Below are positions 389 to 23,356 of a DNA stretch of 23,583 bases, one piece after another. The notes beneath the pieces are model-generated. The model did no database searches and was not told the origin of the DNA. It saw only the letters and a list, made by a program, of their open reading frames with translations. Position 1 is the first letter of the stretch, and every line of letters begins with the position of its first letter. The stretch spans positions 1-23,583 of the forward strand of contig CAMOQW010000018.1 in assembly GCA_946623195.1 (NCBI GenBank). Reading direction: 5' to 3'. Source of the stretch: an uncultured Prevotella sp. (GTDB lineage: Bacteria > Bacteroidota > Bacteroidia > Bacteroidales > Bacteroidaceae). Made by a program: the position numbers and the translations under genes.

Positions 389-2446
389 TTAGGAATATCG
401 GAAAGCAACTATGGTGAGGTCGTCGTTTTGTTCGGCTCCCTGCCGGAATTGGTTTACGTCAGCCTTCAGCGCCTCTACGATGTCGTGAGAGTTATTCGTA
501 TTGTGCGAAGCTAACAGTTCTATGATGCGCTCCTCGCCATATTGCTCTTGCTGCTGGTTTTCTGCTTCGTTGAGGCCATCAGTGTATAACAGCATCAGGC
601 GGTTGTGGAAGTATTCTATCTCTTCACCCTTAAACTCCAATTCCGGCCAAAGTCCGATGGGAGCATTGGTCTCCTCTACATCGAGGAACTTGAATTGTCC
701 GTCAGCATTGCCTATCACAGGGGGATTGTGGCCGGCATTGCAATATTCCATTCGTCCGAGTTTCATATCGAACATACAGATGAACATAGTGACAAACATA
801 CCGCTCTCATTGTTTTCAGACAATTCGAGGTTCAGACGGGTGGCTATTTCCGCTGGGTTCCTCCCCATTAAGGCCAGTGAACGGAATCCACGTGTGGCTA
901 TGGTCATGAAGAGCGAGGCAGGCACACCCTTGCCGCTGACGTCTCCTATGCAGAAATATATTTTATTGCCTTTAATCAGATAGTTGAAGAGATCGCCGCC
1001 CACCTCTTTAGCTGGTGTCATTGAACCGTACATATCCAGACCTTCCCTTATGGGGAATACTTGTGGTATCATAGACATCTGTATGTCGCTTGCAATGCGC
1101 AGTTCACTTTCCATACGCTCCTTCGCGGTGGTAGTCTTTTCGAGTTGGTCGTAGGCTACCATGAGGTCGTTATGTGCCTTCTTAAGACGGGATTGGACAC
1201 GATGGCGTACAAAGATGTAAATAAGGAGGAGTACGATGGTTGTCGTCATACCGATCATACGTCCTATCTGACGCTGGTGGTGATACTCTTCGTTTTCGGC
1301 AGTAATCTCTAATTCTTTTTGGTGGACGGCGGCATTCTCACGGACTTTGGCCAGTTGTGACTGCGTGATGGCAGAGTCCAGGTGTTCTACGATTTTCACA
1401 CTGACGGCACGGGCAGAATCTATTCGTCCGGCCCGCTTGTTGATGTTATATTTCTTGACTTGCAGCTTCTGTATGTTCTCCAGCGTATAGTACACACCGT
1501 ATTCCTTCATCAGCGTCTCCATGCTGCTGAAGTTGTCGGCGGCTTCTTGCCAAAGTCCTGCCAGCATCAGATAGTCACAGGCCAGGATCTTACCTTCTGC
1601 CGTATGGAAGAAAGAGGTCTGACAGAACTTTTGGTAGGCATCTGCGGCTTCTTGCTTGCGTCCAAGGCCCTCCAGGGCTCTGGCGCGATAGACGTCATAG
1701 CGTGCCCATTGTTTTTCGGCGAAGTCTTTATGTGCATCTTTCTGTTTGGTATATCCTTCTATCAGATAGGCGTATTTGTCTAACCACACGAGAGCCTGCT
1801 TGTAGTCTCCTATATCCATAAAGGTATAGCTGATATTGATGACACCTATGATAGCGTCACGATAGTTGGTGGCGTATGGATGTTTCTTAATGAGATTAAG
1901 GTGAGCGCGATAGCCTTCTTCCAGTTTCTCGTTGATATTTTTCTCGTTTAATCCGAAGCGGCTCTGACAGCAACCGATGTAGATACGCATATTAGCGTAT
2001 TCGTTTGTCGTGTCGCGTTTTAGGCTTTTCAACCGTTCAACGGCAGGTACTGCCACCTTGAGGGCTCCCTCATATTCACCCCATGTACTCAACAGGCCTG
2101 TCAGGCGGTTGCAAATGCCGGCATAGACCCTCACGTCCTCATCGTCTGTGGAGTTCTCCACAGCAGCGATACCCGTTTTCCAGTATAGTTCCGCCATCCG
2201 TTTCTGCATCATACGGTCGTAGGCGTACCCCAGCCAGTAGCAGGCTTTACCCTCGGAAAAACCGCCATTGGTCTTGAAGCTGTCTGCAAGGATGATGATA
2301 CGGGGGTAGTCTTTAGCCATGTATGCAGCATAAACCATGTCTTCTGCTTGTCTGCGTAGCTCTTGGCGATGATGGTTACTACCAATGCATCCTGTCAGGA
2401 ATGCCAAGAGCAAGAAGAATAAATAGAAGGCAGGTTTCTTAGTCAT
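389..2446 (-). CDS. Membrane lipoprotein with TPR-like sensor region and SpoIIE/PP2C phosphatase domain
   Basis: This 685-residue protein starts with a lipoprotein signal (LTGC, lipid-accepting Cys20). Residues about 30-385 form a helical region with degenerate TPR-like repeats, predicted to be periplasmic. One membrane helix lies at about 397-414, a coiled-coil linker at about 415-460 and a C-terminal SpoIIE/RsbU-type serine phosphatase domain at about 465-685. Metal-binding landmarks of PP2C/SpoIIE enzymes are visible: GGD (Asp485), GDVSGKG (Asp502), YTDG (Asp623) and NDDLT (Asp675/676). NAGHNPP is also typical. Family members dephosphorylate anti-anti-sigma or STAS-type partners, but no such partner is encoded here. 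The likely role is to pass an envelope signal to a cytoplasmic phosphoserine switch. The gene follows lgt by 18 bp; Lgt is the enzyme that would lipidate this protein, though that may be coincidence. Confidence 0.9.
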   Translation of the reverse strand: MTKKPAFYLFFLLLAFLTGCIGSNHHRQELRRQAEDMVYAAYMAKDYPRIIILADSFKTNGGFSEGKACYWLGYAYDRMMQKRMAELYWKTGIAAVENSTDDEDVRVYAGICNRLTGLLSTWGEYEGALKVAVPAVERLKSLKRDTTNEYANMRIYIGCCQSRFGLNEKNINEKLEEGYRAHLNLIKKHPYATNYRDAIIGVINISYTFMDIGDYKQALVWLDKYAYLIEGYTKQKDAHKDFAEKQWARYDVYRARALEGLGRKQEAADAYQKFCQTSFFHTAEGKILACDYLMLAGLWQEAADNFSSMETLMKEYGVYYTLENIQKLQVKKYNINKRAGRIDSARAVSVKIVEHLDSAITQSQLAKVRENAAVHQKELEITAENEEYHHQRQIGRMIGMTTTIVLLLIYIFVRHRVQSRLKKAHNDLMVAYDQLEKTTTAKERMESELRIASDIQMSMIPQVFPIREGLDMYGSMTPAKEVGGDLFNYLIKGNKIYFCIGDVSGKGVPASLFMTIATRGFRSLALMGRNPAEIATRLNLELSENNESGMFVTMFICMFDMKLGRMEYCNAGHNPPVIGNADGQFKFLDVEETNAPIGLWPELEFKGEEIEYFHNRLMLLYTDGLNEAENQQQEQYGEERIIELLASHNTNNSHDIVEALKADVNQFRQGAEQNDDLTIVAFRYS

Positions 2447-12115: not shown

Positions 12116-13588
12116 TTATTTAATCAGTTGGTTCACGGCATTGCGCCAGCCCTGATAGAGGGCGAAGCGCTGCGGACTGTTCTGAGGCTGGAAGGTCTGG
12201 GTGACCTTGCGGAAGTCGGTCACCTCATCGAACGACTTCCACAGTCCGCGGGCAAAGCCGTTCATGATGACGGCTCCAAGAGCAGAGGCATCGTCAACCT
12301 CTGTGCACACTACAGGAGTTTCCAGCATGTCGGCCTGGAATTGCATGAGGAACCGGTTCTTGGTGGGACCGCCGTCGGCACAGATCTCACTCAGCCGTCC
12401 ACCTGTGGTACGGGCCATCACGTCAACTAAGTCCTTGATCTGATAGGCTATCGACTCCAGAGCAGCGCGCAGGAAATGGGCTTTTGTGGTGGCGAAGGTC
12501 AGTCCCAACACCGCTCCCTTGATGTCACTCTGCCACCAGGGTGCACCTAATCCGGAGAAGGCAGGCACAATATAGACGCCACCATTGTCGGCAACACTAG
12601 TTGCCAGTGCCTCCATCTCTGACGGGTGGTCCACCAATTGCAGTTGGTCGGCAATCCATTTCAGCGTCGCTCCCGTGCTGTAGATGTTACCCTCGTAGCC
12701 GTAGTAAATCTTTCCGAATGCTGAGAATCCTACACTGGTGACAAGTCCTTGAGGGGCAGCTTTGGGCTCTTCACCGATATTGACCATCACGCTGGATCCC
12801 GTACCGTAGGTTACCTTACCTGAGCCTTTTTGGAAGCACATCTGACCGACCAGAGCACCATGTGAGTCACCCAGCACACCGGCTATCCGGATAGGGTGGG
12901 GGAATACCCCTTCGCAAGTGGTTTCGCCATAGACGGCATCGCAGGGCATCACTTCGGGCATCATGGTGCGGGGAATGTCGAAGAGCTTCAGCAAGTCGTC
13001 ATCCCACTGCATAGTGTGGATATTGAACAGCATGGTGCGTGAGGCATTGGTATAGTCGGTGGCGTGCACTCTACCGCCTGTCAGTTTCCAGATAAGCCAT
13101 GTGTCGATGGTGCCCATCAGCAGTTCACCACGGTTAGCGGCCTCGCGGGCACCCTCTATGTTGTCGAGGAGCCATTTCACACCGGTAGCTGAGAAATTGG
13201 GGTCTATGAGCAGTCCGCTCTTGTCGAACACTCGTTTGGCTAAGCCCAGTGAGCGTAGTTCGCGGCATAGCTCGGCACCACGAGTGTCTTGCCACACCAC
13301 AGCTCGGCTGATGGGCTTGCCAGTTTCCTTATTCCAGACGACGGCCGTTTCGCGCTGGTTGGTAATGGCGAGGGAGTACTCTGAGGACTCGGAGTGCTCG
13401 GAGAAAAGCATTCTGATGGCTTCTACCATATTGTTGTAGATTTCTTCAGCGTCATGCTCCACCCAACCGGTCTGAGGGTAGTACTGCTTGTGATCGACAT
13501 TGGTGCGGGCCACCATGCGACACTGCTCGTCAAACAGCAGAGCTTTCGTTGACGACGTACTTTGATCGATGGCTATAATGTAATTCAT
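12116..13588 (-). CDS. FGGY carbohydrate kinase, glycerol-kinase-like with altered substrate pocket
   Basis: The 490-residue protein follows glycerol kinase closely: AIDQSTSSTKALLFDE (P-loop), QTGWVEHDAEEIY, ITNQRETAVVW, GTIDTWLIWKLTGGRVHATDYTNASRTMLFNIHT, TYGTGSS and PAFSGLGAPWW. However, of the residues that hold glycerol in E. coli GlpK (Arg83, Glu84, Tyr135, Asp245, Gln246, Phe270), only Arg79, Glu80 and catalytic Asp241 are retained. Tyr135 becomes Asn131 (IDPNFS), Gln246 becomes Ser242 (GDSHGA) and Phe270 becomes Ser266 (GTGSS). A substrate other than glycerol is therefore likely, such as a ketose made by the adjacent isomerase. Automatic annotation as glycerol kinase or xylulokinase would both be unsafe. 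The ATG overlaps the transketolase C-half stop (ATGA), so the genes are translationally coupled. Confidence 0.9.
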   Translation of the reverse strand: MNYIIAIDQSTSSTKALLFDEQCRMVARTNVDHKQYYPQTGWVEHDAEEIYNNMVEAIRMLFSEHSESSEYSLAITNQRETAVVWNKETGKPISRAVVWQDTRGAELCRELRSLGLAKRVFDKSGLLIDPNFSATGVKWLLDNIEGAREAANRGELLMGTIDTWLIWKLTGGRVHATDYTNASRTMLFNIHTMQWDDDLLKLFDIPRTMMPEVMPCDAVYGETTCEGVFPHPIRIAGVLGDSHGALVGQMCFQKGSGKVTYGTGSSVMVNIGEEPKAAPQGLVTSVGFSAFGKIYYGYEGNIYSTGATLKWIADQLQLVDHPSEMEALATSVADNGGVYIVPAFSGLGAPWWQSDIKGAVLGLTFATTKAHFLRAALESIAYQIKDLVDVMARTTGGRLSEICADGGPTKNRFLMQFQADMLETPVVCTEVDDASALGAVIMNGFARGLWKSFDEVTDFRKVTQTFQPQNSPQRFALYQGWRNAVNQLIK

Positions 13589-14508
13589 GCAATAAAGTCT
13601 TTAGTAGCATTGACGATACCTTCGGCATCCAGTCTGTAGTGGTGGAAAATCTCGGCATTGGTGCCGTGGATGACGTTCTCATCGGGAATGCCGAGTATGC
13701 GAACGGGTACAGGGTGTTCTGAGAGCGTCTCCACGATGATGGCTCCCAGACCGCCAAACTGAGAATGCTCCTCGACGGTGACGATGCGGCCCGTTTCCTG
13801 GGCAGCCTTGCGGATGGCCTCATGGTCGAAGGGCTTGATCCACGACATGTCCAGCACACGGGCCTTGATACCCTGCTCCTGCAGACGGAGCCCTGCCTGC
13901 CAGGCGTGATAGACGGTTTCGCCGGTAGCCACGATAGTGACATCAGTGCCGTCCAGCAGTTGGATGGCCTTCCCTGGGGCAAAATCGAAATCGTCGTTGG
14001 CATAAACATCAGGTACGGCAGCACGTCCTACACGGACATAGCAGGGCTTGTCGTAGTTGACGAGGAATTTCACTAACTTTTTCGTCACACGCCAGTCGCT
14101 GGGCAGACAGACGGTCATACCCGGGAAGGTGCGTAGCACGGCAATGTCGTGCAGCGAATGGTGGGTGGCTCCCAAGGCTCCGTAAGCCACGCCGCCCGAA
14201 ACACCCAGTATAGTAACGGGATTTTCAGAGTAAGCCAAGTCAACTTTCACCTGTTCCAATGAACGGGCTACATAGAAGCAGGCTGGACCACAGCAGAACA
14301 CTTTTTTGCCTGAGTGTGCCAAGCCGGCCGATATGCCCACGGCATCCTGTTCGGCAATACCACATTCTACAAACTGCTCGGGCAGTGCTGCTGCATAGTC
14401 GCCCAGCGTCACCGAACCACGGGCATCTGTGGTTACGGCGATTATATCTTTGTCCTCACGCGCCAGTTCCAGCAGCGTGTCGGTAAACTGTTTTCTACAT
14501 GCTATCAT
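13585..14508 (-). CDS. Transketolase C-terminal subunit (split enzyme)
   Basis: This 307-residue protein is the pyrimidine-binding and C-terminal half of a transketolase, which moves two-carbon units between ketose and aldose phosphates using thiamine diphosphate. The key glutamate that activates the cofactor is Glu53 in ECGIAEQDAVG. GATHHSLHDIAVLRTFPGMTV and VRVGR follow the family pattern, and the transketolase C domain runs from about residue 185 (TDVTIVATG onward). Two-subunit transketolases are common in anaerobes, archaea and Firmicutes. The partner half lies directly upstream across a 61-bp gap filled with an 8-bp repeat. Its stop overlaps the kinase start by 4 bp. The donor could be xylulose 5-phosphate or, in D-apiose-type pathways, apulose 4-phosphate. 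Confidence 0.94.
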   Translation of the reverse strand: MIACRKQFTDTLLELAREDKDIIAVTTDARGSVTLGDYAAALPEQFVECGIAEQDAVGISAGLAHSGKKVFCCGPACFYVARSLEQVKVDLAYSENPVTILGVSGGVAYGALGATHHSLHDIAVLRTFPGMTVCLPSDWRVTKKLVKFLVNYDKPCYVRVGRAAVPDVYANDDFDFAPGKAIQLLDGTDVTIVATGETVYHAWQAGLRLQEQGIKARVLDMSWIKPFDHEAIRKAAQETGRIVTVEEHSQFGGLGAIIVETLSEHPVPVRILGIPDENVIHGTNAEIFHHYRLDAEGIVNATKDFIA

Positions 14509-14512
14509 AATT

Positions 14513-14576
14513 GTTCCGATGTTTCGATGTTCCGATGTTCCGATGTTTCGATGTTCCGATGTTTCGATGTTACGAC
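14513..14576 (-). repeat. 8-bp tandem repeat between transketolase halves
   Basis: Eight consecutive octamers read GTTCCGAT or GTTTCGAT on the plus strand, the last degenerate (GTTACGAC). The array fills nearly the whole spacer: its last unit includes the stop codon of the N-half gene and its first unit ends 4 bp before the C-half start codon. Unit type changes only at one position (C or T). Confidence 0.9.
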
Positions 14577-15400
14577 AGGAGGGCTATGCGTTCACTGATT
14601 TCGGCTACGGCCTGGCGGCATTGCTCCTCATTCAATACACCATGATGCCATTTGGCAATGCCTTCCATGAAGCTGACACCACGTCCCTTGGTGGTGTTGC
14701 TGACCAGCAGGTGTGGCTTCTGGTTCGTGTAGTCGATGGCAGCAAAAGTCTTGAGGATGTCCTCCATATCGTCGCCGTTCATTTCGATTACGTCCCAGCC
14801 GAAGGCACTCCAGCGTTCGCGGATAGAGTCGATGGGCATCACGTCTTCTGTATTGCCGCTAATCTGCAGGTGGTTACGGTCGATGATGGCAACTAGATTG
14901 TCTAACTTATACTTGCTGCCGGCCATGGCAGCCTCATATATAGAACCCTCACCCTGCTCGCCGTCGCCCATCATGACGAAGGTGCGCCACTGCTTCTTGT
15001 CCATCTTGGCGGCAATGGCCATACCCACTCCAATGGGTAGTCCGTGGCCCAGGGCTCCACTGTTCACCTCGATGCCAGCTACCTCGATGGTGGGATGTCC
15101 ACTCAGAATGGAGCCAAACTGACCCAGCGTGTCCAGCACCTCCGGCTTCAGGTATCCCTTGGCCTCCAAAGTCACATACAATGCCTCTACACAGTGCCCC
15201 TTCGACAGCACAAAGCGGTCGCGCTCAGGTGCCTTGGGTTGTGCAGGGTCAAGATTCTTCATCACCTCAAAATACAAGGCCGTCATCACATTCAGGCACG
15301 ACAAATCACCACCTATGTGACCTGCCTTGGCGGCATATACCACCTCAACCAACCGTTTGCGGTTCTTTTCCGCCAACAGTTTCAATTCTTTTACGTTCAT
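14570..15400 (-). CDS. Transketolase N-terminal subunit (split enzyme)
   Basis: This 276-residue protein is the thiamine-diphosphate-binding half of transketolase. The cofactor motif GDGEQGEG starts at Gly145 and ends about 30 residues later at Asn176 (DRNHLQ), as in the family. Other landmarks are HIGGDLS (28-34), LSKGH (65-69), SGHPTIEVAGIEVNSGALGHGLPIGVGMA, and a C-terminal WHHGVL. It is first in the six-gene minus-strand operon, so expression of isomerase, kinase, GH3 and GH67 probably depends on a promoter in the 153-bp divergent gap with gpmI. No convincing TAnnTTTG box was found for this side. The enzyme may serve the pentose phosphate pathway in general or the dedicated sugar route of this operon. 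Confidence 0.94.
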   Translation of the reverse strand: MNVKELKLLAEKNRKRLVEVVYAAKAGHIGGDLSCLNVMTALYFEVMKNLDPAQPKAPERDRFVLSKGHCVEALYVTLEAKGYLKPEVLDTLGQFGSILSGHPTIEVAGIEVNSGALGHGLPIGVGMAIAAKMDKKQWRTFVMMGDGEQGEGSIYEAAMAGSKYKLDNLVAIIDRNHLQISGNTEDVMPIDSIRERWSAFGWDVIEMNGDDMEDILKTFAAIDYTNQKPHLLVSNTTKGRGVSFMEGIAKWHHGVLNEEQCRQAVAEISERIALLS

Positions 15401-17147: not shown

Positions 17148-18032
17148 TTACTTGACTTTAGCCACCAGTTCAGCAGGATATTTCGGCATGGCACCATTCT
17201 GGGTGCATACGTATGCACTGACTTCCACGGCGATGCGGTGTGCCTCCTTGATGGGCTTGCCATTCAGAATGGCGGCACAGAACGACCCCGTGAACGAGTC
17301 GCCAGCTCCTACGGTATCAGCCACCTCCACCTTCGGGGTGGGCTGGAACGACTGCTGACCATCGGCTGTGAAGACATAAGAACCGTTGGTGCCGCAGGTC
17401 AGCACGAGCAACTGCAGGTCGTAGTCCTTGACAATCTGTTCGCACACCTTGGCATCGTCCAGGTCCTGATAGCCGAACATGCGGCTCACTACTACCAGTT
17501 CCTCGTCGTTGATCTTCAGGATGTTGCAGCGGCGGAACGATTCCTCCAGAACTTCCTTCGAGAAGAACTGCTGGCGCAGGTTGATGTCGCAAATCTTCAG
17601 GCAGTCCTTGGGAGTGGCTTCCAGGAACTTCTGGATGGTCTGGCGGCTTACCACGTTGCGCTGAGCCAGTGAACCAAAGCATACGGCACGACAGTTCTTG
17701 GCAGCTTCCTCGACCTCAGCGGTGAATGGGATGTTGTCCCAAGCTACGTTCTCCTTGATTTCGTAAGTGGGGATGCCCTCACCCGTCAGCGTTACCTGTA
17801 CCGTACCGGTGGCGTATGGCACGCGCGGCATCAGGTATTTCAGTCCGTTATTCTCTAAAGCTTCAATAGTCTCTTCTGCCAGCTTGTCCTCGCCCAGGGC
17901 GCTGATAGCCATGGTGTTGAGACCAAACTGACCAGCATGATAAGCGAAATTTGCAGGTGCGCCACCCAGTTTCTTTCCTTCGGGCAGCATGTCCCATAAT
18001 GCCTCGCCCAGTCCGATAATAAGATTCTTCAT
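17148..18032 (-). CDS. PfkB-family fructokinase
   Basis: The 294-residue protein is a ribokinase/PfkB-family sugar kinase of normal length, predicted to phosphorylate fructose with ATP in the cytoplasm. The N-terminal substrate motif KKLGGAPANFAYHAGQFG (21-38) is characteristic of fructokinases. The C-terminal PfkB signature DTVGAGDSFTGSF contains the catalytic base Asp245. It is the last gene of the GH32-permease-kinase operon, so the set reads as cleave fructan, import fructose, phosphorylate it. The gap of 43 bp to the permease is AT-rich with short CGTT repeats and no promoter that I can identify. Activity on another hexose is possible, but context favours fructose. Confidence 0.93.
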   Translation of the reverse strand: MKNLIIGLGEALWDMLPEGKKLGGAPANFAYHAGQFGLNTMAISALGEDKLAEETIEALENNGLKYLMPRVPYATGTVQVTLTGEGIPTYEIKENVAWDNIPFTAEVEEAAKNCRAVCFGSLAQRNVVSRQTIQKFLEATPKDCLKICDINLRQQFFSKEVLEESFRRCNILKINDEELVVVSRMFGYQDLDDAKVCEQIVKDYDLQLLVLTCGTNGSYVFTADGQQSFQPTPKVEVADTVGAGDSFTGSFCAAILNGKPIKEAHRIAVEVSAYVCTQNGAMPKYPAELVAKVK

Positions 18033-18075: not shown

Positions 18076-19236
18076 TTAGTGTTTCACGTTCTTGATGAAT
18101 GTGAAGAGGTAGACGACACCTACTGCCATGACAGCAACGGCACCGGCCTGCCCCATGGCATCGCTCATGAAGCCCATGACGAGAGGGAACACCGTGCCGC
18201 CGAACAACCCCATAATCATAAGGCCCGAGACCTCATTCTGCTTGTCGGGAACAGAGAGCAGTGCTTCTGAGAAAGCCATCGAGAAGATGTTGGAGTTGCC
18301 GTAGCCGACCAGTGCGATGGCTGTGTAGAGCATGGCCTTCGACTGTCCTCCGAACATCAGTGCCATAGAGACAGCCATCAGTACGACGCTGATGATGAAG
18401 AACCAGCGGGTCTTCATGACGCGCAAGAAGAAGGAGCCCGTCAGTGCACCGATAGTACGGAAGATGAAGTACAGAGAGGTGGCAAAAGCAGCCTCGTTGA
18501 GCGTCATGCCTACACGCTCCATCAGCAGTTTCGGAGCCGTGGTATTAGTGCCCACGTCGATACCCACGTGGCACATGATAGCCAGGAACGACAGCAGTAC
18601 GATGGGCTTGCCCAGCAGGCGCAGACAATCCATGAATGATGACGACTTGCCCTCAGCAATTTCTTCCTGAATAGGTGTGGCCCACAGCAGCAGGCTGGCC
18701 AGCACGCCCACGATGAAATAAACCAGGAACAGCACGCGCCAGTCGTAGCCGAACGACGGCATGACCTGCGTGGCACCCCACATAGCCAGATAGGGAGCCA
18801 GGAATGAGGCGATGGCCTTGACAAACTGTCCGAAAGTCAGCGTTGATGCCAGGTTTTTGTCTCCGATAATCAGCATGGCCAGCGGGTTGATGCTGGTCTG
18901 CATCAGTGCATTGCCGATGCCCAGCAGCGAGAAGGCCACGAGCATGATTTCGAACGAGTAGCCCAGCAGTGGGATAAACAGCGACACGACGGTCACGATA
19001 AGCGAGAGCAACACGGTTTTCTTGCGGCCTATCTTGTTCATTAGCATACCCGTGGGCACGGAGAAGATGAGGAACCAGAAGAACACCAGCGAGGGGAACA
19101 CGTTGGCCACGGAGTCGCTCAGCTGCAGGTCTTCCTTGACATAGTTGGATGCAATGCCCACGAGGTCTACAAAGCCCATGCAGAAGAAGCACAGCATCAC
19201 GGGAATCAGATAGATGGATTTGTTTTGGTTAGCCAT
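18076..19236 (-). CDS. MFS sugar permease, FHS family (probable fructose importer)
   Basis: The 386-residue protein has about 12 hydrophobic segments of a major facilitator and resembles the fucose-galactose-glucose (FHS) proton symporters, the type that imports fructose in Bacteroides fructan loci. Visible landmarks include the loop motif NKIGRKKTVLL after the second segment, GIGNALMQTSINPLAMLIIG, MCHVGIDVGTNTTAPKLL at the start of the second half, and GLMIMGLFGGTVFPLVMGF near the C-terminus. The frame extends 9 codons further to a TTG, but the ATG at 19234-19236 (MANQNKSIYLIPV) gives a normal FHS start. Placement between GH32 and fructokinase supports fructose as substrate. It acts in the inner membrane. 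Confidence 0.92.
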   Translation of the reverse strand: MANQNKSIYLIPVMLCFFCMGFVDLVGIASNYVKEDLQLSDSVANVFPSLVFFWFLIFSVPTGMLMNKIGRKKTVLLSLIVTVVSLFIPLLGYSFEIMLVAFSLLGIGNALMQTSINPLAMLIIGDKNLASTLTFGQFVKAIASFLAPYLAMWGATQVMPSFGYDWRVLFLVYFIVGVLASLLLWATPIQEEIAEGKSSSFMDCLRLLGKPIVLLSFLAIMCHVGIDVGTNTTAPKLLMERVGMTLNEAAFATSLYFIFRTIGALTGSFFLRVMKTRWFFIISVVLMAVSMALMFGGQSKAMLYTAIALVGYGNSNIFSMAFSEALLSVPDKQNEVSGLMIMGLFGGTVFPLVMGFMSDAMGQAGAVAVMAVGVVYLFTFIKNVKH

Positions 19237-19273
19237 ATCTTTTTGAGTCTTTTTAATATTCAAAGAATAATGT

Positions 19274-20935
19274 TCAATGTTTAATCTCGTAGACGGTAGC
19301 CTTTCCGCCCTTTACCTTTACGTCATTGTATGCTTCCGTGGGGAATACCAGGTTGGTCATGGCCATGTGGCCGTCGGCATCGAATACCTCCATGGAGCAT
19401 CGGTCGATGAAGATGCGCAGCTGCTTCAGCTGACCGTGAGTGGGAGCCGTCGTAGTGCAGGCAAAGTTTTCGCTGAACGAGCTGTCACCGCTCTTTGTGC
19501 GGTCCATGGCGAAGGTCTGCTTCTGGGCATCGTAGTGCATCACCACCTGTTCGCCTTTCAGATTCGAGAAGGTGATGTCGGCCGAACCCTTTAAGTCGAC
19601 GATGACTTCGCAGGTCTCAGTAGGCTTCTTGATTTTCTGTCCGCGAACGGCCAGCATCTCCTTCGAGGGCACTACGCTGACGTAGGTCTCTTCGCCGTCA
19701 GTAAACAATCCGAGGTCGCGGGGCACGCTGTTGGCAGAACGGAACTGCTTGGTGGGCACCTGGTTGGCATACTGCCAGTTCGACATCCAGGCCAGTGCCA
19801 CGTGGCGTCCTTCCGGAGCATTGTAGAAGGTGACGGTGGCATAGTGGTCCTTGCCGTAGTCGAGCCATTTCGTCACCTTTGGCATCGATTCGCAAGTGAA
19901 GCGGTGGCCATCGAAGTCGCCTACAAAGTACTGGGTGGCAGAACCGCCGAAGGGACCGCCGGGGTTGATGTTGCACAGCAGCACCCACTTTTGGCCAATC
20001 TTCAGCAGGTCCGGACATTCCCAGACGCCGCCGTGGTTGCCGTATTCCTTGCCGAACGAGCTTTCATATTTCCACTGCTTCAGGTCTTTCGACGAGAATA
20101 TCTGCATCTCCTGACCCACAGCCAGTATGAGATTCCAGCAGCCGTTGTCTTCGTTCCAGAACACCTTCGGGTCGCGGAAGTCCGGGGCGTCGGCAGTCAG
20201 CACGGGGTTGCCGCTGAATTTCTGAAATGTGCGTCCGCCGTCCTTGGAGACCGCCATCGACTGCGTCTGGTGATGACCGGCCGACGTGTAGAAAGCCACC
20301 ACGTCGCCTGCGTTGGTCACGCAGGAGCCGCTGAAGATGCTGCCCAGCCAGTCGGCCTCGATAGCCGTAGGCTGAGCCTCCCAATGTATAAGGTCGCGCG
20401 AGGTGGAGTGTCCCCACGTCATGTTTTCCCACTGCGAACCGTAGGGGTTCCACTGGTAGTACAGATGCCATACGCCATCCTTGTAGAACATGCCGTTGGG
20501 GTCGTTCATCCATCCATAGAGGGGAGTGTGGTGATAGGCGGGACGGAAATGCTCGCGATTGGTGGTGTCGAAGGTGTTGGAATACTTCATCTCCTTCCAG
20601 CATACAAATTCGCTCACGGCACCCTTCTGCCGGCGGTCTCCGTGAAACTCGATGTCGAGCAGCCAGGCACCCTTCAGCTCCAGGGGCACATAGTAGTCCA
20701 CCCGGTCGGTGGCCAGTTTGACGTTCAGCCGCCGGGCCATGTCGTTCTTGCTGTTCACGACGGCGATGGCTGCAATGTCTTCCGACTCCTGGACGGGCAG
20801 CAGCAGAAACTTTTCTCCCTGTTTCACCTTCAGCATGGCGTGCTTCTCACCTAAGACCGTCGGCTTCACCTGAGCCAGAGCCGCAGCAGCTCCTGCCAGC
20901 AGCATGGTCATCAATGCAAATACGATTTTTCTCAT
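19274..20935 (-). CDS. GH32 beta-fructosidase (levanase/inulinase type), exported
   Basis: GH32 enzymes hydrolyse beta-fructosyl bonds in levan, inulin or sucrose. The 553-residue protein has a cleavable signal peptide (AAALA-QVK, about residues 1-21). A short N-terminal beta domain of the DUF4980 type found on Bacteroides GH32 enzymes spans about 25-125, then comes the five-bladed propeller and a C-terminal beta-sandwich (about 420-553). The catalytic triad is visible: nucleophile Asp145 in WMNDPNG, transition-state stabiliser Asp255 in FRDPKVFW and acid/base Glu306 in WECPDL. The C-terminal domain has the FIDRCSMEVF pattern. There is no lipobox, so a periplasmic location is likely. It is first in its operon and divergent from the regulator, which is consistent with induction by fructose or fructan. 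Confidence 0.96.
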   Translation of the reverse strand: MRKIVFALMTMLLAGAAAALAQVKPTVLGEKHAMLKVKQGEKFLLLPVQESEDIAAIAVVNSKNDMARRLNVKLATDRVDYYVPLELKGAWLLDIEFHGDRRQKGAVSEFVCWKEMKYSNTFDTTNREHFRPAYHHTPLYGWMNDPNGMFYKDGVWHLYYQWNPYGSQWENMTWGHSTSRDLIHWEAQPTAIEADWLGSIFSGSCVTNAGDVVAFYTSAGHHQTQSMAVSKDGGRTFQKFSGNPVLTADAPDFRDPKVFWNEDNGCWNLILAVGQEMQIFSSKDLKQWKYESSFGKEYGNHGGVWECPDLLKIGQKWVLLCNINPGGPFGGSATQYFVGDFDGHRFTCESMPKVTKWLDYGKDHYATVTFYNAPEGRHVALAWMSNWQYANQVPTKQFRSANSVPRDLGLFTDGEETYVSVVPSKEMLAVRGQKIKKPTETCEVIVDLKGSADITFSNLKGEQVVMHYDAQKQTFAMDRTKSGDSSFSENFACTTTAPTHGQLKQLRIFIDRCSMEVFDADGHMAMTNLVFPTEAYNDVKVKGGKATVYEIKH

Positions 20936-20977: not shown

Positions 20978-21023
20978 GGAAAAATAATCCTGGCAGACTA
21001 TAATTTATGATACAAAACCTAAA

Positions 21024-21069
21024 AAAAAACGTTCATTTTAACCTTTTTGTTATCCAATGAACGTTTTTT
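21024..21069. promoter_or_regulatory. Perfect 14-bp inverted repeat, candidate operator
   Basis: AAAAAACGTTCATT (21024-21037) and AATGAACGTTTTTT (21056-21069) are exact reverse complements, separated by 18 bp. The pair lies between the GH32 and regulator promoters, about 10 bp above the regulator -33 box. Centre-to-centre spacing of 32 bp is close to three helical turns. It is the best candidate binding site for the AraC-type regulator. Confidence 0.6.
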
Positions 21070-21078
21070 GCTTACTTT

Positions 21079-21110
21079 TTTGGCAGGTTCGTGGAAAATA
21101 ACTAACTTTG
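21079..21110 (+). promoter_or_regulatory. Bacteroidetes-type promoter of the regulator gene
   Basis: TTTG (21079-21082) and TAACTTTG (21103-21110) are 20 bp apart, a full match to the Bacteroidetes consensus. Predicted start near 21117 leaves about 30 bases of leader. This box lies inside the 13-codon upstream extension of the reading frame, which supports the later ATG start. Confidence 0.8.
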
Positions 21111-21146: not shown

Positions 21147-22760
21147 ATGCAGAAACCATTATTAGTCCTGTTGTCCTTGTTGCTGTGCTATGGGTGTAGT
21201 CGCCAGACCCCGCGCTATGTGATCGGAGTGTCACAATGCTCCGAAGACATCTGGCGCGAGAAGCAGAATGCCGAGCTCCGCCTGGGGGCCTATTTCCAGG
21301 ATGGCGTGGAGTTGCGTTTCGCTGCCGCCTACGACAGCGACGAGCGTCAGGTGCAGCAGATTGACAGTCTGGTGAAGACCGGCATCGACCTGCTGATTGT
21401 TGCCCCCAACCAGGTGCAGACCATATCGCCGGCCATCGACAGGGCCTTCGACAGCGGCATCCCCGTCATCGTCTTTGAACGCAAGACCAATTCCCGCAAA
21501 TACACCGCGCTTATCAGTGCCGACAACTACGAGATGGGTCGGCAGATGGGCGAATTTGTAGCCGCCCGGCTCAGCCGTCACGGCACCATCATGGTGGTCA
21601 AGGGTCTGGAGGGCTCTTCGCCAGCCATTGAGCGCCACAAGGGATTTCTCGACGTCGTCAGCCAGTATCCCGACCTCCGCGTGGTAGCCACCCTGCAGGG
21701 CGACTGGACTGAAGAGACTGCCTATAAAACGGTGAAAGAGTGGTGCTCCCGGCAGCCCAATGTAGCCGTCGACCTGGTGTTTGGCCTGAACGACCGTACC
21801 GCCATGGGAGCCCGCAAGGCCTTCCAGGAGGCTGCCCGTCATCGCGGCTCCCAAGACTTGGGAGAGGGTGGTGGCAGCCGTCTTCCCCTTTTCTGCGGAA
21901 TCGACGGGCTGCCGGGCAAGGGCGGTGGCATCCAGCTGGTTCGCGACTCCATCCTCGAAGCATCCTATATCTATCCCACCTGTGGCGACCAGCTGCTGCA
22001 GTTAGCCGTCGACATACTCGACGGCAAGCCCTACGAGAAAGAGAAGCACCTGATGTCGGCCCTGGTCACCCGCGACAATGCCAATGTGCTCTACATGCAG
22101 AGTGAGGAGCTGCGCGAACAGAGCCACTATCTGGACCGCCTCCACCGTCAGGCCGACAACTATCTGCAGCAACTCGACACCCAGCGCACCATCACCCTGC
22201 TGGCCTTCATCGTCATCGCCCTCCTGGTGGTGGCCATCGTCCTGTTCTATCTTTATCATATAGGAAAGGTGACACTGCGGCAGGAACGCGTGGTCAACAC
22301 CCTGTGGAATATGAATACCGATGCTATTCCTCAGTCCGACGAGCCCCAACAGCCCGCAGACGCTGTGGCAGCAGAGCAGCCCCATGCCGAAGTTCCTCAG
22401 CCCGGGGCTGCCAGCCATGCCGACCCGCTGCCCATGCCTGCCACCGCCACCCTCTTCATAGCCCGCTTCAAGGAAGCCGTTGAGGCCCGCCTGGAGGATA
22501 GCGAGCTCAGCATAGAAGACCTGGCCGCCGACATGCATCTGAGTCGTGTACAGCTCTATCGCAAGGTCAAGGCGGTCACCGGTTCCACTCCTGTTGAATT
22601 GCTGCGCACCGCCCGTCTGCAGCGCGCCTACCAGTTGCTGGCCACTACCGACAAGAGCATCAGCGAGGTGGCCTATCAGGTAGGCTTCACCGCCCCCAGC
22701 TATTTCACCAAGTGCTTCAAGGAAGAGTATGGTCAGCTGCCCGGCGACTTGAGAGGGTGA
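21147..22760 (+). CDS. Transmembrane one-component regulator: periplasmic fructose-sensor-like domain fused to AraC HTH
   Basis: The 537-residue protein starts with a lipoprotein-like signal (LLLCYGC, Cys17; the -3 residue is unusual). A type I periplasmic-binding domain follows (about 24-312), with YVIGVSQCSEDIWREK, DLLIVAPNQVQTISPAIDRA, VIVFERKTNS and ALISADNYEMG. From memory these closely match the sensor of B. thetaiotaomicron BT1754, the fructose-binding hybrid two-component sensor. A helical stretch (316-347), one membrane helix (348-372), a Pro/Ala/Gln-rich linker (395-435) and an AraC-family HTH pair (437-535; LSIEDLAADMHLSRVQLYRK and SISEVAYQVGFTAPSYFTKCFKEEYG) complete it. There is no histidine kinase, receiver or ATPase domain. 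It probably senses fructose in the periplasm and activates the divergent GH32-permease-fructokinase operon directly from the membrane. The ATG at 21147 is preferred over a TTG at 21108 that overlaps the promoter. Confidence 0.93.
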   Translation: MQKPLLVLLSLLLCYGCSRQTPRYVIGVSQCSEDIWREKQNAELRLGAYFQDGVELRFAAAYDSDERQVQQIDSLVKTGIDLLIVAPNQVQTISPAIDRAFDSGIPVIVFERKTNSRKYTALISADNYEMGRQMGEFVAARLSRHGTIMVVKGLEGSSPAIERHKGFLDVVSQYPDLRVVATLQGDWTEETAYKTVKEWCSRQPNVAVDLVFGLNDRTAMGARKAFQEAARHRGSQDLGEGGGSRLPLFCGIDGLPGKGGGIQLVRDSILEASYIYPTCGDQLLQLAVDILDGKPYEKEKHLMSALVTRDNANVLYMQSEELREQSHYLDRLHRQADNYLQQLDTQRTITLLAFIVIALLVVAIVLFYLYHIGKVTLRQERVVNTLWNMNTDAIPQSDEPQQPADAVAAEQPHAEVPQPGAASHADPLPMPATATLFIARFKEAVEARLEDSELSIEDLAADMHLSRVQLYRKVKAVTGSTPVELLRTARLQRAYQLLATTDKSISEVAYQVGFTAPSYFTKCFKEEYGQLPGDLRG

Positions 22761-22883
22761 ATCTTAAAGTATTACCATTCCAGATGGATGAGTCAGCTCT
22801 GAGAGGGTGAAGAAGCTCGGGGGATAAGGATTGGACATTTGGTGCTAAGTAGCTATAAATTAGCAGTTTACATTTATTTTTCC

Positions 22884-22971
22884 TTCTACTTTGCCTCTAC
22901 TTTGCCTCTACTTTCCTTCTACTTTCCTTCTACTTTGCCTCTACTAATCCTCTACCTTCTTTCTATTAAAC
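22884..22971 (+). repeat. 11-bp tandem array, left copy
   Basis: Eight units of exactly 11 bp follow each other, with consensus YTCTACTTTSC. The first five are nearly identical and the last three diverge (CTCTACTAATC, CTCTACCTTCT, TTCTATTAAAC). The period is one unit per helical turn. Confidence 0.9.
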
Positions 22972-23155: not shown

Positions 23156-23261
23156 GGGAAAGAAGAAATAGAGAGAAAAGTAACGGGAACGTATGTTGGA
23201 ATCTGCGAGGCAGGGATGTAGATGTTAAAAAGACTATAGGCTGGGTAGTCAAGAGATAGAA

Positions 23262-23338
23262 ACAAAGCAGAGGTAAAGTAGAGGTAAGGTAGAGGCAAAG
23301 TAGAAGCAAGGTAGAGGCAAAATAGAGGCAAAGTAGAA
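23262..23338 (-). repeat. 11-bp tandem array, right copy in opposite orientation
   Basis: Seven units of 11 bp read GCAAAGTAGAR on the plus strand, the reverse complement of the left array unit. Units vary at two or three positions (for example GTAAGGTAGAG, GCAAAATAGAG). The gap between the two arrays is 290 bp. Confidence 0.9.
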
Positions 23339-23356
23339 GAAAGATTCCAAGTAAAT

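What the first reader, a model, noticed from the sequence alone, without database searches (positions are those of the whole stretch)
21147..22760. A fructose-sensor domain wired through one membrane helix directly to an AraC DNA-binding domain
Seen: signal sequence, type I periplasmic-binding domain, one membrane helix, a Pro/Ala/Gln-rich linker and a complete AraC HTH pair in one 537-residue frame, with no kinase, receiver or ATP-binding motifs. Known: in B. thetaiotaomicron the same kind of sensor (BT1754) is part of a hybrid two-component system that works by phosphorelay. Inference: here the phosphorelay has been left out or lost, giving a membrane-held one-component activator that must reach its operator from the membrane. 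The low-complexity linker could act as a flexible tether. Which came first, this form or the hybrid kinase, is an open and testable question.
Basis: partly seen in the sequence, partly recalled or inferred. Interest (0 to 1): 0.85.

Follow-up and report, generated by a model that had tools for sequence, protein, structure and literature searches.

The report
Fructose switch that shed its kinase
A Prevotella-like bacterium carries a membrane protein that joins a likely fructose sensor straight to a DNA-binding domain; comparison with relatives indicates it is what remains of a larger phosphate-passing sensor that lost its kinase parts but kept its sugar sensor and its DNA target.

Summary
In detail: 21147-22760 (+) is one intact 537-codon frame with a BT1754-type sugar-binding domain, one membrane helix, a low-complexity linker and an AraC DNA-binding domain, without kinase or receiver domains. 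The form is common in Prevotella. The same sensor occurs in three architectures: full hybrid two-component systems (H), hybrids lacking only the ATP-binding domain (I), and one-component forms (O, this protein). In the sensor tree O and I nest among H, and a single origin of all O is rejected. O linkers keep a remnant of the segment after the receiver. The acidic residue matching the receiver contact is present in 67/67 H, 115/118 I and 17/206 O. I forms keep both phospho-residues (126/126 rows) though they have no ATP-binding domain. A conserved operator lies in fixed register before susC in most O loci, occurs in related H loci, and lies in that register before the window's GH32-transporter-kinase operon. 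Best reading: a ligand-gated, membrane-tethered activator made by loss of a phosphorelay, with its target kept. Ligand, membrane location, DNA binding and activation are inferred, not shown.

The parts
21147..22760 (+). One-component transmembrane regulator (537 aa), O form
21204..22151 (+). Periplasmic type I sugar-binding sensor (about residues 20-335), BT1754-like
22191..22259 (+). Single membrane helix (about residues 349-371), inside a continuous predicted helix 309-387
   Evidence: Sequence; AF2 model
22278..22310 (+). Conserved juxtamembrane block RQERVVNTLWN (residues 378-388); in the O consensus its LWNMKP part matches the segment after the receiver in I forms
22311..22451 (+). Low-complexity Pro/Ala/Gln/Glu linker (about residues 389-435), modelled without secondary structure for most of its length
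22455..22757 (+). AraC/HTH_18 DNA-binding domain (residues 437-537)
21058..21065 (+). Candidate operator half-site TGAACGTT, inverted relative to the GH32-side sites
21028..21035 (-). Candidate operator half-site TGAACGTT reading toward GH32; ends 50 bp before the GH32 -7 box
21007..21014 (-). Second direct half-site TGTATCAT, 21 bp downstream (slot B)
   Evidence: TGTATCAA, TGCATCAA and TGTATCAT at the same place in L007, L025 and L070
20970..20977 (-). Candidate -7 box TATCTTTG (TAnnTTTG, consensus recalled) of the GH32 operon
   Evidence: Sequence
21103..21110 (+). Candidate -7 box TAACTTTG of the regulator gene
   Evidence: Sequence
19274..20935 (-). GH32 fructan/sucrose hydrolase (DUF4980 + GH32N + GH32C), inferred target operon
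18076..19263 (-). MFS sugar transporter, inferred target operon
17148..18032 (-). PfkB-family (fructo)kinase, inferred target operon

Best explanation
This is a membrane-tethered one-component activator of fructose/fructan use, derived from a BT1754-type hybrid two-component system by loss of the ATP-binding domain and of the phosphoacceptor and receiver domains. Supported by sequence evidence: ancestry from full HTCS, living ATPase-less relatives, more than one origin of the one-component form, loss of the residue that matches the receiver contact, and a conserved candidate operator in fixed register to the target promoter. Inferred: that the loss went H to I to O in the window's own line; that periplasmic fructose (or a close ketose) closes the sensor; that a dimeric helix carries the change through the membrane to the conserved RERVVNTLWN block; and that this changes how the two AraC domains on flexible linkers are paired, so that they bind the direct repeat (21 bp period) upstream of GH32-transporter-kinase and activate it without phosphorylation.
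For: Architecture. Sensor kinship: 2x7x best by sequence and by Foldseek; W36, R112, R163, N215 and D253 match BT1754 in the alignment, with D->E at 111 (their role as pocket residues is recalled from RbsB-type proteins). Ancestry: O and I nest among H; one origin of all O rejected, p-AU 2.25e-5; Glu at 111 in 210 of 223 O and 121 of 126 I rows, Asp in all 51 H rows (of 67) where the motif was found. Intermediates: the best 120 listed relatives of L152 (of 7998) have HisKA+REC+AraC and no HATPase. Remnant: O junction consensus against the I post-receiver consensus scores 35, shuffle mean 16.2, reached by 4 of 2000. Receiver-contact acid: 67/67 H, 115/118 I, 17/206 O unique rows; interface from PMC11253607 (passages). 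Operator: 65 of 73 unique O loci with susC next, against 0-2 in five composition shuffles; 61 of the 65 in one of two linked spacings to the -7 box; one copy in the window, in register with GH32. Tethered HTCS bind DNA in vivo: PMC3404733 (passages).
Against: No ligand, localisation, DNA-binding or expression data. The D->E change could shift sugar specificity. The pre-HisKA remnant is weak (63 of 2000 shuffles). In the window's own clade neither O nor I being one clade is rejected (AU p 0.165 and 0.163), so O and I are not ordered there by the tree. A long flexible linker is an awkward conductor of a rigid signal. The operator has not been shown to bind this protein; 8 of 73 O loci lack it, and only 2 of 5 I loci (at up to 2 mismatches) carry it.
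Confidence: 0.72

Rival explanations
1. The one-component form is ancestral and the hybrid kinases arose from it by insertion of a kinase-receiver cassette.
For: In the window's own clade the order of O and I is not resolved.
Against: H rows fill the branches nearest the root and most of the order sample. 17 of 206 unique O rows still carry the receiver-contact acid, 12 of the 18 listed rows in lineages apart from the main O clade. O junctions differ between lineages, as expected for separate deletions.
Confidence: 0.06
2. The protein is activated by regulated proteolysis: the sensor triggers cleavage near the membrane and the AraC domain is released.
For: Long low-complexity linker (median 67 aa, range 36-113, in the 172 of 223 O rows with the block).
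Against: Intact HTCS are recovered on DNA by ChIP-seq with antibody to the periplasmic part (PMC3404733, passages); that is for HTCS, not for O forms. No cleavage motif was sought.
Confidence: 0.15
3. O forms are not autonomous: they hetero-pair with, or are driven by, a full HTCS or another histidine kinase in the same cell.
For: Two genomes of the family and order samples, G009 and G366, hold both O and H forms. In L032 a separate HisKA+HATPase kinase gene lies directly upstream of the O gene. Other HTCS-sized AraC frames are present in the O genomes searched.
Against: In the genus sample 74 of 144 listed genomes show only O, 2 show O with I and none O with H (class by frame length; weaker matches are not listed). 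L032 is the only such kinase neighbour among the loci scanned. O forms have no HisKA or receiver to be phosphorylated.
Confidence: 0.09
4. The conserved inverted repeat is a transcription terminator after the regulator gene, not an operator.
For: It has A/T-run flanks and in susC-linked loci lies just downstream of the regulator.
Against: In the window and in L007, L025 and L070 a copy lies between divergent genes. Half-site spacing and distance to the -7 box take two linked values 21 bp apart.
Confidence: 0.07

Closest known systems
BT1754 (HTCS_Fru), Bacteroides thetaiotaomicron hybrid two-component system
   Same: Same sensor family (40% identity), AraC output, transporter and kinase among the targets (PMC3878776, passages)
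   Different: BT1754 has kinase and receiver parts (PMC3404733, passages); the window protein has none
Transmembrane transcription regulators (TTR; PMC10269533, passages), and the membrane-bound AraC proteins of Saccharophagus (PMC2386152, passages)
   Same: One polypeptide, membrane helix, DNA-binding domain
   Different: Here descent from a hybrid kinase with living intermediates is visible; by that paper's definition 'hybrid TTR' would cover H and I forms, not O
CadC/ToxR-type membrane one-component activators (recalled)
   Same: Membrane-tethered DNA-binding domain, no phosphorelay
   Different: DNA-binding domain at the other end, winged-helix rather than AraC fold, no sugar-binding sensor
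E. coli XylR (recalled)
   Same: PBP-type sugar sensor fused to an AraC domain
   Different: XylR is cytoplasmic and senses cytoplasmic xylose; no membrane helix

Membership tests
Hybrid two-component system (HTCS) | HisKA and HATPase_c kinase core | tested here: not met
Hybrid two-component system (HTCS) | Receiver domain with phospho-Asp | tested here: not met
Hybrid two-component system (HTCS) | N-terminal sensor, membrane helix, C-terminal AraC domain | tested here: met
BT1754-type fructose sensor domain | Sequence and fold kinship to 2x7x | tested here: met
BT1754-type fructose sensor domain | Binds fructose | not testable with these tools
   Recalled pocket positions mostly as in BT1754 but D->E at 111
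Transmembrane transcription regulator (TTR) | Membrane helix and DNA-binding domain in one chain | tested here: met
   helix judged from sequence and model, no topology program run
Transmembrane transcription regulator (TTR) | Acts from the membrane | not testable with these tools
   Sequence and model only
AraC/XylS family | Two helix-turn-helix motifs of HTH_18 type | tested here: met
   HTH_18 459-536, HTH_AraC two stretches
CadC/ToxR-like regulators | Winged-helix DNA-binding domain (recalled) | tested here: not met
   HTH_18 instead, no winged-helix family at E<=1

The most novel reading that the evidence does not exclude
A phosphorelay has been taken apart more than once, in two steps, while its sugar input and (in the window's clade) its DNA target were kept. 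The first step left a large family of ATPase-less hybrids that keep the phospho-His and phospho-Asp in every row seen, so they probably receive phosphate in trans from other hybrid kinases; the second left pure one-component switches such as this one, in which sugar binding alone gates AraC pairing across the membrane.
Probability: 0.4. Interest if true: 0.88.

Novelty: new variant of a known kind. Interest (0 to 1): 0.78.

Why it matters
Two-component systems are usually thought to have grown out of one-component systems (recalled). Here the reverse path appears to have been taken more than once, with intermediate and end states alive and abundant in Prevotella, and in the window's clade with the same promoter layout. 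That makes it possible to ask, by swapping natural homologues on one operator, what the phosphorelay adds to a sugar switch, how an ATPase-less hybrid with an intact His and Asp is driven, and how a tethered AraC domain is kept off without its receiver. It also offers a candidate regulator type for fructan loci without an adjacent HTCS, as reported for Segatella copri (PMC11784079, passages).

Tried and rejected

Rows left out: one search listed 62 matches, 59 fetched (three cut by contig ends left out); one search listed 35, 33 fetched (two already held). One search used 121 rows (a subsample of O and I rows; sensor stretches under 230 aa and sensor-only rows left out). One search used 71 rows after long-branch rows and many H rows were dropped by hand. 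Counts include some repeat copies of one gene, and some identical sensor-to-end sequences; one search repeats the main ones on unique rows (O 206, I 118, H 67). Rows marked None are regex misses. One search did not list its weakest matches, so one search covers the 150 listed rows, classified by frame length only. Shuffles keep base composition only, not dinucleotides.

Full report
What is there. The frame at 21147-22760 (+) is intact and 537 codons long. Pfam finds a type I periplasmic sugar-binding domain and an AraC DNA-binding domain and no kinase or receiver between them. The closest solved protein is the BT1754 fructose sensor, 2x7x, by sequence (E 4e-77) and by Foldseek (rank 1, 40% identity); VIA-align puts eight other sugar-binding entries above it. 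The AF2 model (mean pLDDT 71, pTM 0.45) shows one helix from 309 to 387, which would cross the membrane and end at a conserved block RQERVVNTLWN, then an unstructured linker and the AraC fold; residues 303-321 and 383-429 are of low confidence. The signal sequence ends in a Cys that is invariant in the 39 and 40 aligned O forms of A2 and A3, so it may be of lipoprotein type; a loose lipobox pattern fits 155 of 223 O, 126 of 126 I and 44 of 67 H rows.

It is a family, not an oddity. The protein search scored 7999 candidates and 7998 passed; the best 120 listed all have the same Pfam parts. In the GTDB-based contig set 455 of 471 pattern-matching stretches encode relatives; of the 80 kept, 68 are titled Prevotella or Prevotellaceae, 8 Bacteroidales and 4 Bacteroidaceae, many from ruminants by title. 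A susC gene starts within 1.2 kb downstream on the same strand in 73 of 89 unique O loci, in 5 of 6 I and in 15 of 67 H loci.

Three architectures share the sensor. Searching whole genomes with the sensor alone gave matches in 55 of 151 genomes of one family (E<=1e-20) and 28 of 247 of the order (E<=1e-30). Profiles started from L154 segments sort the proteins into full hybrid systems (H: HisKA, HATPase, receiver, AraC), ATPase-less hybrids (I: HisKA, receiver, AraC) and one-component forms (O); Pfam agrees for the representatives tested. The I form is not an accident of one genome: the best 120 listed of 7998 relatives of the I protein L152 (the first a near copy) all have HisKA, receiver and AraC without HATPase. 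In the genus sample 171 of 249 genomes have the sensor (E<=1e-30); of the 150 matches listed, 78 are O-sized, 41 I-sized and 31 H-sized; among the 84 of 65% identity or more, 60 are O-sized, 23 I-sized and 1 H-sized, the last being I by domains. The nearest full HTCS seen have 57% sensor identity (L242, L243; Pfam of L242). Of the 78 genomes behind L148-L239, two hold both O and H forms (G009, G366) and four both I and H (G122, G136, G143, G366).

Direction of change. In the sensor trees O and I lie among H (121 rows, quick; 71 rows, careful). The window's clade holds 22 O and 13 I rows (100/100 support), a second mixed clade 6 O and 4 I rows (100/100), and further O rows (L162, L165, L186/L188; L236) stand apart. 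Holding all 32 O rows together is rejected (p-AU 2.25e-5); holding the O rows of the window's own clade together is not (p-AU 0.165), nor the I rows (0.163). The BT1754 sensor falls with the H rows L174 and L175 (68 and 67% identity; branch support 90, not starred), outside the O/I clades. Two molecular fossils agree. First, the conserved O block carries LWNMKP where the I consensus carries LWSMKP just after the receiver; the two consensus segments score 35 against a shuffle mean of 16.2, reached by 4 of 2000 shuffles, and the top eight windows printed along the cytoplasmic part of P0174 all cover that place; the segment before HisKA matches only weakly (63 of 2000). Other O lineages have visibly different junctions, which fits separate deletions. 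Second, in Bacteroides HTCS an Asp near the start of the DNA-binding domain and a Lys in its recognition helix are predicted to touch the receiver's S/CHIP loop, and changing the loop frees DNA binding (PMC11253607, passages read). I placed that Asp by its distance of 39 residues from the Lys. An acid there (positions -3/-2 before a fixed Phe) is present in 67 of 67 H, 115 of 118 I and 17 of 206 O unique rows; of the 18 O rows that keep it (one a repeat), 12 belong to O lineages apart from the main clade, 5 look like main-clade rows and one (L074) was not placed. [SC]HIP is kept in 59 of 67 H and 121 of 126 I rows.

The ATPase-less hybrids keep their chemistry. In 126 of 126 I rows the phospho-His, the phospho-Asp and the receiver Lys are present, and no HATPase gene was found in the fetched surroundings of the six I loci. 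Most of these rows are close kin (120 are the best hits of one query); of the six others, L152 is kin to them, four form part of the second clade and L229 stands apart on a long branch. A protein that lacks an ATP-binding domain but keeps both phospho-sites is most simply explained by phosphate supplied in trans; small-molecule donors are the alternative. The AF2 model of P0124, 99% identical to L152, shows a helical hairpin, receiver and AraC fold (mean pLDDT 75).

Operator. Between GH32 and the regulator the window holds AACGTTCA-N22-TGAACGTT at 21028-21065, conserved in L007, L025 and L070 and the only such repeat in the window under the pattern used (composition shuffles 0.1 per window). 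In O loci with susC next, a repeat of the form ATCGTTCA...TGAACGAT (up to 2 mismatches) is present in 65 of 73 unique loci (five shuffles: 2, 1, 1, 0, 0), with start-to-start spacings of 51 (35), 30 (24), 50 (4) and 29 (2). The distance from its end to the TAnnTTTG -7 box is 29 bp when the spacing is 50-51 and 50 bp when it is 29-30, in 61 of 65. So an inverted site sits at a fixed place and two direct sites 21 bp apart occupy slots at -58 and -37 (67 rows with repeats). A direct repeat with an average 21-bp distance is what was predicted for Bacteroides HTCS (PMC3878776, passages read). The half-site was first noticed on the GH32 side, the register was measured on susC promoters, and then the same register was found on the GH32 side of the window and of L007, L025 and L070 (spacing 29-30, distance 50); the regulator side of the window gives 37. 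Among H loci, five of the seven closely related complete ones (L156, L158-L161, not L154 or L155) carry the repeat; over all H loci it is 10 of 67 against 4 in shuffles, so it is not general; of I loci L152 carries it and L112 a poorer copy. Five of the eight O loci without it (L024 second gene, L111, L195, L200, L226) belong to the second clade. So operator and target were kept while the phosphorelay was lost in the window's clade. The -7 boxes are a recalled consensus, not mapped starts.

Function. GH32, an MFS transporter and a PfkB kinase form the divergent operon; transporter and cytoplasmic kinase are reported for the HTCS_Fru regulon (PMC3878776, passages). The sensor keeps W36, R112, R163, N215 and D253 as in BT1754 in the alignment, but has Glu for Asp at 111, as do 210 of 223 O and 121 of 126 I rows, so fructose is likely but a related ketose or a shifted affinity is possible. 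Intact HTCS bind DNA in vivo while presumably tethered (PMC3404733, passages), so reaching DNA from the membrane is not a special problem. Without a receiver, the off state must come from elsewhere; I favour ligand-controlled pairing of the two AraC domains through the long helix. This last step is inference.

Prior knowledge and novelty. Membrane-bound AraC proteins and TTRs are known (PMC2386152, PMC10269533, passages), and HTCS are well studied. I found no report of the ATPase-less hybrids or of the H-I-O series in eight library searches, of which I read listings and passages of seven papers. I rate it a new variant of a known kind.

Noticed in passing
L152, L112, L193, L194, L198, P0124-P0243: ATPase-less hybrid regulators (HisKA-REC-AraC) with the phospho-His and phospho-Asp in every row seen; how they are phosphorylated is unknown.
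   Followed up: partly
L237 (5442-7493, -): Same sensor type fused to a SpoIIE-type phosphatase domain instead of AraC.
   Followed up: no
L238 (823-2862, +): Same sensor type with HisKA and HATPase only, a plain sensor kinase; outgroup.
   Followed up: partly
L111-L112 (Prevotella sp. tc2-28, G003:C18 108-129 kb): Two susC/susD loci side by side, one governed by an O form and one by an I form, 53% identical over the aligned N-terminal part.
   Followed up: partly
L032 (5902-7986, +): A separate HisKA+HATPase kinase gene directly upstream of an O-form regulator.
   Followed up: partly
window 22879-22969 and 23256-23343: Two tandem repeat arrays with 11-bp units (TCTACTTTGCC and CAAAGTAGAGG) in the stretch after the regulator.
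   Followed up: no
window 13585-15400: Transketolase split into two adjacent genes, beside an FGGY kinase, a fucose-isomerase-like protein, GH3 and GH67.
   Followed up: no
window 389-2446 (-): Protein with a SpoIIE phosphatase domain.
   Followed up: no
L249 (1445-3040, +; G641): Another O form with a different junction that keeps a long coil-like stretch before the AraC domain, a likely separate deletion.
   Followed up: partly
Segatella copri DSM18205 NQ544_00085-00145 (PMC11784079): Published inulin locus without an adjacent HTCS; an O or I form may be its regulator.
   Followed up: no
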